Source: a virus. From it: a stretch of 20,184 nucleotides of DNA. Where the stretch lies: positions 1 through 20,184 of the IMG/VR virus record IMGVR_UViG_3300036785_000807; one strand, written 5' to 3'. This document shows positions 4,447-7,188 of this stretch, in pieces (within the stretch, counting starts at the first letter, position 1; each line of letters begins with the position of its first letter). Position numbers and translations under genes: made by a program. The notes under the pieces are model-generated. The model saw nothing but the letters and a program-made list of their open reading frames with translations, did not search any database and had not been told where the DNA came from.

Positions 4447-4641
4447 TCAGCTCGCTTCCTCGTCCGTCCTCGGCACCGGTGGAACCGGCTGCCGCAGGGC
4501 CTCAATGTCTTCGGCTCGGAATCGCCGCTGGCCGCCAGGGGTCACCCAACATGGGACCTTGCCGTCGTCAGCCCAGCGAATGAGCGTCAGGCGGTGCACA
4601 CCCAAAATGTCGGCCGCGTCCTGGGTGCCAAGATCAGGCAT
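4447..4641 (-). CDS. MerR/BldC-type HTH protein: excisionase or Cro-like regulator
   Basis: This 64-aa protein is almost entirely a winged helix: LGTQDAADILGVHRLTLIRW forms the HTH, WVTPGGQRRFRAEDIEAL the wing and last helix. This is the HTH_17/excisionase-like family used by actinophage Xis proteins and small regulators. It is the first gene of the leftward early operon and diverges from the repressor across a 92-bp control region, where a lambda-type phage would carry cro. It could therefore serve as excisionase, as Cro-like anti-repressor, or as both. ATG 4641 has only a weak upstream site (CTGAG). Confidence 0.8.
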   Translation of the reverse strand: MPDLGTQDAADILGVHRLTLIRWADDGKVPCWVTPGGQRRFRAEDIEALRQPVPPVPRTDEEAS

Positions 4642-4659
4642 CTCAGCACAGTGTCATGA

Positions 4660-4665
4660 ATCGTA
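4660..4665 (-). promoter_or_regulatory. Possible -10 of the leftward early promoter
   Basis: On the - strand TACGAT (4665 to 4660) fits a TANNNT -10 element. Transcription would begin about 12 nt before the HTH gene ATG. The -35 at the 17-bp spacing (TGAAGC) is poor. The site lies between the operator-like repeats and the gene, so repressor bound there could block it. Confidence 0.3.
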
Positions 4666-4670
4666 ACAAT

Positions 4671-4699
4671 CCGCAACCCTTTGCTTCACCGTAACCCTT
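4671..4699 (+). promoter_or_regulatory. Operator-like direct repeats CCG(C/T)AACCCTT
   Basis: The 11-mer CCGCAACCCTT (4671-4681) is repeated as CCGTAACCCTT (4689-4699) with an 18-bp period, placing both on roughly the same DNA face. They fill the control region between divergent regulator genes and the second touches the repressor -35. Likely binding sites for the repressor, the HTH protein or both; this is inferred from position. Confidence 0.45.
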
Positions 4700-4726
4700 G
4701 TCACAGAACGTCGTGTCTTGTAACAT
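4698..4726 (+). promoter_or_regulatory. Promoter of the repressor gene, leaderless
   Basis: TTGTCA (4698-4703), a 17-bp spacer, then TAACAT (4721-4726). The -35 differs from TTGACA at one base. The expected start point, 7-8 nt after the -10, falls on or next to the ATG at 4734, and no ribosome binding site precedes that ATG. A leaderless mRNA, common in Actinobacteria, is the simplest reading. Confidence 0.55.
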
Positions 4727-4733
4727 CTCGCAT

Positions 4734-5168
4734 ATGTCATCAAGAGTCGGAGAGGATTTCGAGGACGCCCTGAGGACGAGCACTGAGATGGCCAGAGTCG
4801 TCGAGCAGACGACCAGACTGGCTGCAGAGGTCCGCGCCAACTCGGCGGCCGTCCTTCGAGCCGTGAAGAGCTACCGCCAGTTCACAGACGCGGTCCTGGC
4901 CATGCGGGCGGCCGGCGAGATGAGCCGGGGCGCCGTGCAGAGTTACATGTCCGGCCGGGCCGCTCTCACTGTGGACAAGATGGCGGTGTTCGCCGAGGCG
5001 CTGGCGATCACGCCGAAGCTGTTTTTCGACCCGCCCGACGTGGCGTTGCGCTGGGTCCTCGACAACAGCCCGAACCCTGACCCTACCGATCCCTCTGACC
5101 AGGACGAAAGGGGTTCTTCGCCGCCTACCAAATGGTACGCAAATATGCCTGCACTGGTGGCGGCATAA
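4734..5168 (+). CDS. Immunity repressor with ssrA-like C-terminal tag
   Basis: This 144-aa protein has a helical N-terminal part (1-45), then a Cro/C1-type HTH at about 48-98 (FTDAVLAMRAAGEMSRGAVQ, then SYMSGRAALTVDKMAVFAEA). A Pro/Asp/Ser-rich linker (112-131) follows, and the end is YANMPALVAA. That end resembles the ssrA tag (AN...ALAA), a ClpXP/ClpAP degradation signal. In BPs-type mycobacteriophages the virion form of the repressor carries such a tag and attP lies in the gene's 3' end, so integration removes it and stabilises the repressor. Size, position beside a same-strand integrase and a divergent HTH gene all match. ATG 4734 is preferred over TTG 4698, which is the -35 element. Confidence 0.78.
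   Translation: MSSRVGEDFEDALRTSTEMARVVEQTTRLAAEVRANSAAVLRAVKSYRQFTDAVLAMRAAGEMSRGAVQSYMSGRAALTVDKMAVFAEALAITPKLFFDPPDVALRWVLDNSPNPDPTDPSDQDERGSSPPTKWYANMPALVAA
5126..5167 (+). other. Candidate attP core region in the repressor 3' end
   Basis: Two short inverted repeats lie here: TACCA-AA-TGGTA (5126-5137) and TATGCC (5144-5149) with GGCATA (5162-5167) 12 bp apart. Tyrosine integrases bind inverted core arms, and the comparable phages carry attP at this place. No tRNA 3' end is recognisable, so the crossover site cannot be fixed without a host sequence. Speculative. Confidence 0.25.
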
Positions 5169-5202
5169 GCGTGCCGACCACGTCGAAATGATGCTACGAA
5201 AC

Positions 5203-5218
5203 CGCCCCAATCGGGGCG
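5203..5218. other. Small GC hairpin between repressor and integrase
   Basis: CGCCCC-AATC-GGGGCG is a perfect 6-bp stem with a 4-nt loop, 35 nt after the repressor stop and 41 nt before the integrase ATG. There is no U-run, so a strong terminator is unlikely; it may attenuate read-through into int or form part of the attachment region. Confidence 0.35.
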
Positions 5219-5259
5219 AACCACCAGGGAGCCGCCTCGTCTAGGGGGAGGGCAGAGTC

Positions 5260-6135
5260 ATGGAGACGCTACGAGAGGCGACCACGCGCTGGCTGCGCGA
5301 ACGGGTGCTCGGCGGTGAGATCAGTCCTCGGTCGAGGCGGCTCATGGAGTACCGCCTCGCCGGCCTGATGCAGCGCTCAGGCGCCGACCCGCTGGCCGAG
5401 CTCGACCGGCGAGCCGTGCGGGCCTGGTGGCACAGCGTCGGTCACCTGAGCCCGGCCAGCCGGCGCCTCTACCGCTCGACTCTCGTGTGTCTGTGCCGCT
5501 GGGCTCTCGACGAGGGACTGCTGAGCGACGATCCCAGTCGCCACCTGCCCCGTGTACGTGAGCCCCAGCGGGTCCCACGGGCCCGGCCGCGCTCTGACGT
5601 CGCCCGGCTGCTTCTCGGGGCCCGTGACGAGCGTGAGCGCCTTCTCGTCGTACTCATGGTGCAGATGGGCCTGCGCTGCGTCGAGGTCGCCCGGGCCGAG
5701 CTGGGCGACTACGACCCCGGCGCGCGCACCCTTTTGGTAAAGGGCAAGGGCGCGCACGAGCGGATGCTCCCGGTGCCGGGCCCCGCGGCCGCCGCCATCG
5801 GCGCCTACCGCGACGTCATCGGGTGGCGGGCCGGGCCGCTGGTGTGCGATCTGCACTCGGGCCGCCGGCCGATCAGTGCCCCGGCCGTGGCGCGCGTCGT
5901 GGGCAACCTCATGCGCCGCACCGGGGTGAAGGTGGCCGCCGGCGACGGGGTCACCGCGCATGCGCTGCGTCACACCGCGGCGAGTGATGTCTTGGACCGT
6001 TGCAACAACGTCCGCACCGTGCAGGGCATGTTGGGCCATGCCAGCCTGGCCACCACGCAGATCTATTTGCGCCGGGCCTCGCTCGGGCAGCTGCGCGAGG
6101 CCATGGAAGGCCGTTTCTATGACGATGCCGCCTAA
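5260..6135 (+). CDS. int: Tyrosine integrase
   Basis: This 291-aa tyrosine recombinase carries out site-specific integration and excision at attP/attB. A SAM-like core-binding domain spans about 1-90 and the catalytic domain about 108-285. The catalytic residues are visible: Arg139 in GLRCVEVARAEL, a Lys around 161-163 in VKGKGAHER, His234 and Arg237 in HALRH, His260 in LGHASLATTQIY, and the nucleophile Tyr269. It lacks the extra N-terminal arm-binding domain of lambda Int, so it is of the short, simple type. AGGGGGAGG at 5242-5250 is a strong ribosome site for ATG 5260. The C-terminus is FYDDAA, a possible weak degradation tag. Probably co-transcribed with the repressor upstream. Confidence 0.95.
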   Translation: METLREATTRWLRERVLGGEISPRSRRLMEYRLAGLMQRSGADPLAELDRRAVRAWWHSVGHLSPASRRLYRSTLVCLCRWALDEGLLSDDPSRHLPRVREPQRVPRARPRSDVARLLLGARDERERLLVVLMVQMGLRCVEVARAELGDYDPGARTLLVKGKGAHERMLPVPGPAAAAIGAYRDVIGWRAGPLVCDLHSGRRPISAPAVARVVGNLMRRTGVKVAAGDGVTAHALRHTAASDVLDRCNNVRTVQGMLGHASLATTQIYLRRASLGQLREAMEGRFYDDAA

Positions 6136-6223: not shown

Positions 6224-6412
6224 TTATGACTTGTCGCCGTTGCCCGTCCGCAGCGGCAGGGCGTTGATGATGACGGCCACCCCGCCCAGGAACCCGATCA
6301 CGGCCAGGACGTCGGTCGCCCCGGTGCGGTTCAGGACGAAGACGATGACGGCCAGCACCATGATGGCCACCCCGAGGAGGAGCTCGAGGGCCATCTGGCG
6401 CGTCGGGTTCAT
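6224..6412 (-). CDS. Holin candidate, two transmembrane segments
   Basis: This 62-aa protein has a short basic N-terminus (MNPTRQ), two hydrophobic helices at about 9-27 (ELLLGVAIMVLAVIVFVL) and 33-52 (DVLAVIGFLGGVAVIINAL), and a charged tail (RTGNGDKS). Size and topology match small class II holins, which let the endolysin cross the cytoplasmic membrane at lysis. It overlaps the amidase gene by ATGA and is the last gene of the late block. Many small phage membrane proteins look alike, so the call rests mostly on position. Confidence 0.7.
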   Translation of the reverse strand: MNPTRQMALELLLGVAIMVLAVIVFVLNRTGATDVLAVIGFLGGVAVIINALPLRTGNGDKS

Positions 6413-7188
6413 GCCCGGTCGGGCCGCCCGAAGTAGTGCGCCGAGCCGAAGGTGAACACGCCGCCGTCGCTGGCGAAGAGCCAGTAGCCGTCGTTACCCT
6501 TGCCCGCGATCCCGATCACCTCGCCGCTCAAGACGTCCGGCGAGAAGCCGCCGCCGCAATAGACCGCGTCCCCGAAGGCGTAGACCGCCCCGTCGTGCGT
6601 CGTCGTCCAGTAGCCGTTGCCGGTGCTCGTCGATGCGATCATCGTGCGTCCTTTCCTCGTCGGTGCTGGATCTGGTCCGGGCCGGGCCCCCCCGGCCATG
6701 GCGAGCACGTCGTCCATGGGGAACCCGGGCCCGCAGTCCCAGTGCCCGCCGCCGGCGGATCCGAGGTCGACGTGCTGACAGACCCCACTCGCCCCGCCTT
6801 GGGCCTCGGCCGCTGAGAGGCGGCGCAGCGGGATCCCGAAGGCGGCACACTCCTCGGCGATCCACTGCGCCGTGTTCTGGAGCATGACGGGGTGGCCGGC
6901 CCATTCGCTCGTCCACGAGGCGAAGGCGCACAGCTCGGCGGCGACGCTGTAGGGGTTGGCGTTGCCCTGGGTCCAGGCCTTCATGTCCCGGCGCACGTAC
7001 TCGCCGACGATGCCGGGCGTGTCGTCGATGCCGACGTGGCTGCTGACCCCCGAGCTCGAGCTCGAGAAGAACGACCCGAGCGACTGGTAGGTCAGTGCCC
7101 CCTCGGCGGTGTGCAGCACGACCAGGCGCACGCCCGTACCCCGGCTCGAGTAGTTGGGCGAGGCGATCCACTCGCGTCGCAGCGCCAT
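6409..7188 (-). CDS. Endolysin: N-acetylmuramoyl-L-alanine amidase with GYW repeats
   Basis: This 259-aa lysin has an N-terminal Amidase_2 (PGRP-like) domain at about 1-165 that cleaves the amide between muramic acid and the stem peptide. Likely zinc ligands are His26 (VVLHTAEG), His139 (VCQHVDLG) and Cys152 (HWDCGPGFP), with Tyr/His residues around SSHVGIDD. A Pro-rich linker (169-178) leads to two copies of a beta repeat: GYWTTTHDGAVYAFGDA (192-208) and GYWLFASDGGVFTFGSA (234-250). This repeat is frequent in cell-surface proteins of Actinobacteria, notably Acidimicrobiia, and probably binds the wall. No signal peptide, as expected for holin-dependent release. Its ATG overlaps the preceding stop as TGATG. 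Confidence 0.9.
   Translation of the reverse strand: MALRREWIASPNYSSRGTGVRLVVLHTAEGALTYQSLGSFFSSSSSGVSSHVGIDDTPGIVGEYVRRDMKAWTQGNANPYSVAAELCAFASWTSEWAGHPVMLQNTAQWIAEECAAFGIPLRRLSAAEAQGGASGVCQHVDLGSAGGGHWDCGPGFPMDDVLAMAGGARPGPDPAPTRKGRTMIASTSTGNGYWTTTHDGAVYAFGDAVYCGGGFSPDVLSGEVIGIAGKGNDGYWLFASDGGVFTFGSAHYFGRPDRA

What the first reader, a model, noticed from the sequence alone, without database searches (positions are those of the whole stretch)
4447..6135. Integration-dependent immunity switch: repressor with ssrA-like tail upstream of integrase
Seen: a 144-aa HTH repressor ending YANMPALVAA, followed 91 nt later on the same strand by a tyrosine integrase, with a divergent excisionase/Cro-like HTH gene across a 92-bp control region. 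Known: in mycobacteriophages BPs, Brujita and relatives, attP lies in the 3' part of the repressor gene; the virion form carries a C-terminal ssrA-like degradation tag and integration removes it, so only integrated phage is immune. Inferred: the same switch operates here, in a phage whose host looks like a different actinobacterial lineage. The Pro/Asp/Ser linker (112-131) is a natural place for truncation.
Basis: partly seen in the sequence, partly recalled or inferred. Interest (0 to 1): 0.85.

Follow-up and report, generated by a model that had tools for sequence, protein, structure and literature searches.

The report
Phage repressor with removable degradation tail
A small, probably actinobacterial phage seems to carry its own integration site inside the end of its repressor gene, so that only an integrated phage makes a stable repressor; about 25 relatives share that site in the same reading frame but carry different repressors joined at exactly that point, which suggests immunity modules are swapped through it.

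Summary
A 144-aa repressor-like protein (4734-5168, ending ALVAA) lies 91 nt upstream of a tyrosine integrase (ending DDAA), with a divergent MerR/excisionase-like gene across a 92-bp control region. Relatives in IMG/VR share a 12-15 bp core (TCWACCRRATGG plus a few bases; window 5124-5138) in the last codons of the repressor. In 24 of 24 loci the core has the same reading frame, and 23 of those 24 end in -AA. Unrelated repressor families meet the tail and integrase exactly at this core. Core type follows the integrase tree; repressor family does not. The prevailing core codons are rare ones for this phage, and the inverted-repeat arms covary. Unlike BPs or Gordonia CW phages, the core is short and not tRNA-like. 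No host, attB, attL or attR was found, so truncation, tag removal and proteolysis remain inferred. Mechanism: known kind. New here: a frame-standardised, non-tRNA attP that joins interchangeable immunity modules across a clade of small phages.

The parts
4447..4641 (-). divergent small HTH_17/MerR-like gene (excisionase/Cro position)
   Evidence: Pfam HTH_17 E=3.9e-11, phrog_66 E=3.3e-7
4642..4733 (.). 92-bp control region between the divergent genes
   Evidence: coordinates; two blocks conserved with L003
4652..4668 (.). operator-like candidate TGTCATGAATCGTAACA (imperfect inverted repeat TGTCA..TAACA), conserved in L003
   Evidence: alignment; function inferred only
4698..4726 (+). sigma-70-like repressor promoter TTGTCA-17-TAACAT; ATG 7 nt after the -10, so the mRNA is probably leaderless
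   Evidence: 1 found, 0.1 expected; same element in L003
4734..5168 (+). repressor gene, virion form, 144 aa
   Evidence: type A repressor, 86% identical core in L003
5124..5138 (+). attP core CCTACCAAATGGTAC, in frame as P-T-K-W-Y
   Evidence: 24 loci, same frame, ~2 bits per column at the core against ~0.3 in flanks; joint of unrelated repressors
5136..5165 (+). removable C-terminal tail YANMPALVAA (ssrA-like tag)
   Evidence: 26 of 29 related repressors end in AA
5203..5218 (.). perfect hairpin CGCCCCAATCGGGGCG between repressor and integrase
   Evidence: sequence; a related hairpin in L008/L009; role unknown
5260..6135 (+). tyrosine integrase, 291 aa, C-terminus YDDAA (candidate degradation tag)
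   Evidence: closest isolates are small Gordonia phages EricDab and Emperor

Best explanation
This is an integration-dependent immunity switch. The repressor and integrase are read from one promoter. The attP core (5124-5138) is in frame inside the last codons of the repressor gene, and everything after it encodes a short ssrA-like tag (..ALVAA). In the virion or episomal form the repressor is made with the tag and would be destroyed by a ClpXP-type protease. When the integrase recombines the core with a host attB, the last ~10 codons are separated from the gene, a stable repressor is made, and the divergent early operon is silenced. The integrase also ends in -AA and is probably kept scarce in the same way. 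Shown here: gene anatomy, shared core, frame, tails, and module joints at the core. Inferred: that the core is attP, the recombination with attB, the truncation, and the proteolysis.
For: Gene order and tails. The core TCTACCAAATGG or variants (AGA, GGA centre) lies in the last codons of the repressor in 24 of 24 loci with the same frame; most were found by integrase, not by core, and L021, found by core alone, has a tyrosine integrase downstream. 26 of 29 repressors end in AA against 21 of 208 background ORFs; tail length after the Trp varies (4-23 codons), so the AA is kept at the protein level. Window genes use AAA for 14% of Lys, TAT for 16% of Tyr and TCT for 5% of Ser, yet AAA is invariant in the AAA-centred cores and TCT and TAT predominate there, so the constraint is on DNA. 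Core type follows the integrase tree (3 changes in the 22-member clade, shuffled mean 8.2, 0 of 500 as low); repressor family does not (14 against 13.9). Inverted-repeat arms covary: TACC..GGTA against AACC..GGTT. Reciprocal joints: L003/L004 share 20/60 before, 15/15 in and 43/45 after the core; L002/L004 share 59/60 before and nothing after. Isolated small Gordonia phages have the same layout with tRNA-type cores and -AA tails (PMC5559632).
Against: No host genome, attB, attL or attR was found; every record holds a single copy of the core. The core is short and not tRNA-like, unlike isolated mycobacteriophages of this type (PMC9262239), although short non-tRNA cores are known in M. abscessus integration-dependent prophages (PMC8092301). 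The HTH of this repressor is weak. The host protease and tmRNA tag are unknown. Three of 29 tails end AS or VA.
Confidence: 0.85

Rival explanations
1. The shared TKWY/TGW box is a protein motif of the repressor (oligomerisation or adaptor binding) and the real attP lies elsewhere, for example in 5169-5259.
For: It is always in the same frame, and no attB was found to prove recombination there.
Against: Box type tracks the integrase, not the repressor; rare codons prevail at it; it joins unrelated repressors; the intergenic stretch shows no comparable clade-wide element, and cargo genes sit there in L002, L050, L052, L055, L056, L058.
Confidence: 0.07
2. Ordinary mosaicism: the repressor-integrase region is a generic recombination boundary, the -AA ends are Ala-rich chance, and the system works like a classical cI with attP unrelated to repressor activity.
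For: General mosaicism exists: integrase and endolysin distances are only weakly correlated (Mantel 0.16, p=0.045; integrase against repressor 0.02, p=0.36).
Against: The boundary is a precise 12-15 bp word kept in frame, and AA is ninefold over background.
Confidence: 0.06
3. Assembly chimeras join different repressors to one tail.
For: All loci except the isolates are metagenome contigs.
Against: Joints recur in many separate records from several samples, at a 12-15 bp word, which is short for the word lengths assemblers usually use (general knowledge; assembly settings not checked), with intact frame and tail each time.
Confidence: 0.02

Closest known systems
Integration-dependent immunity of mycobacteriophages BPs, Brujita, Charlie (clusters G, I, N, P)
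   Different: Core 12-15 bp with inverted repeat and no tRNA sequence, against a 35-bp tRNA core in BPs; about 10 residues lost instead of 33; the window's own repressor has no clear relative among isolated phages.
Small-genome Gordonia phages of cluster CW and relatives (McGonagall, GMA5, EricDab, Emperor)
   Same: Closest integrases (31-35%) and terminases (37-40%) among isolates, 16-17 kb genomes, same layout, tails WAA/VAA/AAA, diverged repressors on one shared attP (PMC5559632).
   Different: Their core is a 37-bp tRNA-Lys sequence; here it is a short non-tRNA core.
M. abscessus prophages at non-tRNA attB sites (MabC, MabH, MabN, MabO)
   Same: Tyrosine integrase, attP inside repressor, short non-tRNA cores of 3-25 bp (PMC8092301).
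   Different: Those repressors lack -AA tags; attB is known there, unknown here.

Membership tests
Integration-dependent immunity system | co-directional repressor and tyrosine integrase, divergent early HTH gene, shared control region | tested here: met
Integration-dependent immunity system | recombination core inside the 3' coding part of the repressor (comparative test) | tested here: met
   24 of 24 loci, same frame, joint of unrelated repressors, tracks integrase; attP function itself inferred
Integration-dependent immunity system | attP x attB recombination with truncated repressor at attL | not testable with these tools
   no host genome or junction found
Integration-dependent immunity system | ssrA-like (--AA) tag on the virion form of the repressor | tested here: met
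   ALVAA; 26 of 29 relatives
Integration-dependent immunity system | ssrA-like tag on the integrase (common, not universal) | tested here: met
   YDDAA; 12 of 28 relatives end in AA
Integration-dependent immunity system | common core overlapping a host tRNA gene (usual in isolates, not universal: PMC8092301) | tested here: not met
   no tRNA in window, no T-arm sequence at the core, short core
Integration-dependent immunity system | no arm-type integrase sites | tested here: inconclusive
   no convincing repeats flanking the core
Integration-dependent immunity system | tagged form degraded, truncated form stable and immune | not testable with these tools
   needs experiment

The most novel reading that the evidence does not exclude
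The core is a frame-standardised joint: because all these phages keep it in one reading frame inside the repressor, integrase-mediated recombination between co-infecting phages, or between a phage and a resident prophage end, swaps the whole immunity module (operator, divergent gene, repressor body) onto another phage's tail and integrase and always yields a correctly tagged repressor. The same frame would also bar tandem integration, since a same-frame fusion would be tagged and unstable, as argued for M. abscessus T36 in PMC9934374. Superinfection specificity would then be switched by site-specific recombination.
Probability: 0.35. Interest if true: 0.78.

Novelty: new variant of a known kind. 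Interest (0 to 1): 0.6.

Why it matters
Integration-dependent immunity has been studied in cultured mycobacterial and Gordonia phages. Here it is, by anatomy, the shared rule of a clade of small uncultured phages, and the clade gives a natural experiment: one core, one frame, at least six repressor families, many reciprocal joints. That makes a testable idea of how phages change immunity specificity without breaking the switch, and it supplies several short tags (down to LIAA) for ClpXP studies.

Tried and rejected
A tRNA origin of the core was considered for both strands and rejected for lack of a T-arm; L072 does have a tRNA-antisense core like Gordonia CW phages. A structure of the repressor was predicted but is too poor to use. 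L002, at first taken for a prophage junction, is an attP-form phage with an HNH gene between core and integrase and a tail again ending AAA. The endolysin control shows that mosaicism is general, so free exchange is not peculiar to the repressor. BPs itself is not in the phage collection under the accession tried. An Rfam scan of the window found nothing.

Full report
Observation. The window is a 20,184-base IMG/VR virus record with a small tailed-phage gene set: terminase, structural and tail genes, amidase endolysin, RecT and an exonuclease, all on the minus strand. On the plus strand lie only a 144-aa repressor-like gene (4734-5168) and, 91 nt later, a tyrosine integrase (5260-6135). A small MerR/HTH_17 gene diverges across 92 bp. 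A good sigma-70-like promoter ends 7 nt before the repressor start and is conserved in L003. The repressor ends ALVAA, the integrase YDDAA.

Relatives. Integrase searches of viral contigs gave some 25 close or moderate relatives; a search for the core plus tail pattern added L021, and a search with one repressor family added L102. In each relative with an intact cassette a short gene of the HTH-repressor kind precedes the integrase, directly or with cargo (HNH endonuclease, methylase and others) in between. L021, found by the core alone, has a tyrosine integrase downstream. Hits of the same repressor search outside the clade have no such tail (L103, L104).

The core. In 24 loci the last codons of the repressor contain TCTACCAAATGG, TCTACCAGATGG or TCAACCGGATGG (or CCTACCAAATGG in the window and L008), all in one frame, S/P-T-x-W. 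Information content is near 2 bits at most core columns and near 0.3 in the flanks. Lys AAA, Tyr TAT and Ser TCT are rare codons in window genes (14%, 16%, 5%) but prevail at the core. The arms form an inverted repeat that covaries between groups, TACC..GGTA against AACC..GGTT, and reaches TCAACC-GGAT-GGTTGA in L054 and L057. In the window the core is 5124-5138.

The tail. After the core come 4-23 codons; 26 of 29 repressors (the 24-locus set except L102, plus more distant relatives) end AA, two end AS and one ends VA, against 21 of 208 background ORFs ending AA. L088 carries a repressor of one of these families on a different integrase, without the core, and its tail again ends IAA. The integrases of the window's own subclade end DDAA or DYAA.

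Exchange at the core. Repressor bodies fall into at least six families, some without detectable similarity. On the integrase tree the repressor family needs 14 changes in the 22-member clade, as many as shuffled labels (13.9), while core type needs 3 (shuffled 8.2, 0 of 500 as low). Joints are reciprocal: L003 and L004 differ before and agree after the core, L002 and L004 agree before and differ after it. The endolysin control is only weakly tied to the integrase (Mantel 0.16), so mosaicism is general in these phages and free reassortment as such is not special; what is special is the precise joint and the fixed frame.

Mechanism. Together with the published BPs system (PMC4557955, PMC9262239) the simplest reading is integration-dependent immunity: tagged, unstable repressor in the virion form, stable truncated repressor after integration through the core. 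Shown here are anatomy, core, frame, tails and joints. attP function, attB, truncation and proteolysis are inferred.

Comparison. The nearest isolates are small Gordonia phages, which use the same layout with a 37-bp tRNA-Lys core and for which diverged repressors on an identical attP were already noted (PMC5559632). The review of mycobacteriophages states that their integration-dependent systems use tRNA attB sites (PMC9262239), but M. abscessus prophages include short non-tRNA cores (PMC8092301). So the short core is unusual, not unprecedented. In M. abscessus T36 tandem prophages of this type were explained by different repressor frames at a shared core (PMC9934374); here all frames agree, which by the same logic would bar tandem lysogeny and keep modules interchangeable. 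Agreement of frame is partly self-perpetuating if exchange occurs at the core, so it is not 24 independent observations.

Verdict.

Noticed in passing
window 6409-7188 (-): Endolysin with an amidase domain and a C-terminal part of GYWLxxxDGGVFxFG-type repeats, which I recall (not tested) from Acidimicrobiia proteins; a possible host clue.
   Followed up: no
window 5203-5218: Perfect GC hairpin between repressor and integrase; a related hairpin occurs in L008/L009 but not in L003/L004. Could be an attenuator or terminator controlling integrase expression.
   Followed up: partly
L002, L050, L052, L055, L056, L058 between repressor stop and integrase: Cargo genes (HNH endonucleases, DNA methylase) sit between the core and the integrase, often starting at an ATGA overlap with the repressor stop; they would lie at attR after integration.
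   Followed up: partly
L064, L066, L074, L063: More distant relatives have other cores (GTCCGCATGGGTTACGGCGGATGA type; CCTACCATTTGGTAT) with TGG at the same codon position, as if the integrases changed the centre of the site while keeping the arms.
   Followed up: partly
L072 2533-2895: Repressor tail overlaps a tRNA-antisense core nearly identical to that of Gordonia phage EricDab but in another reading frame.
   Followed up: partly
L009, L024, L025 upstream of the repressor: The divergent gene differs with the repressor family (MerR-like with types A-C, XRE/Cro-like with types D and F), so the exchanged module may include operator and divergent gene.
   Followed up: partly
L088 2965-3369: A type F repressor joined to a different integrase and a different tail that still ends IAA.
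   Followed up: partly
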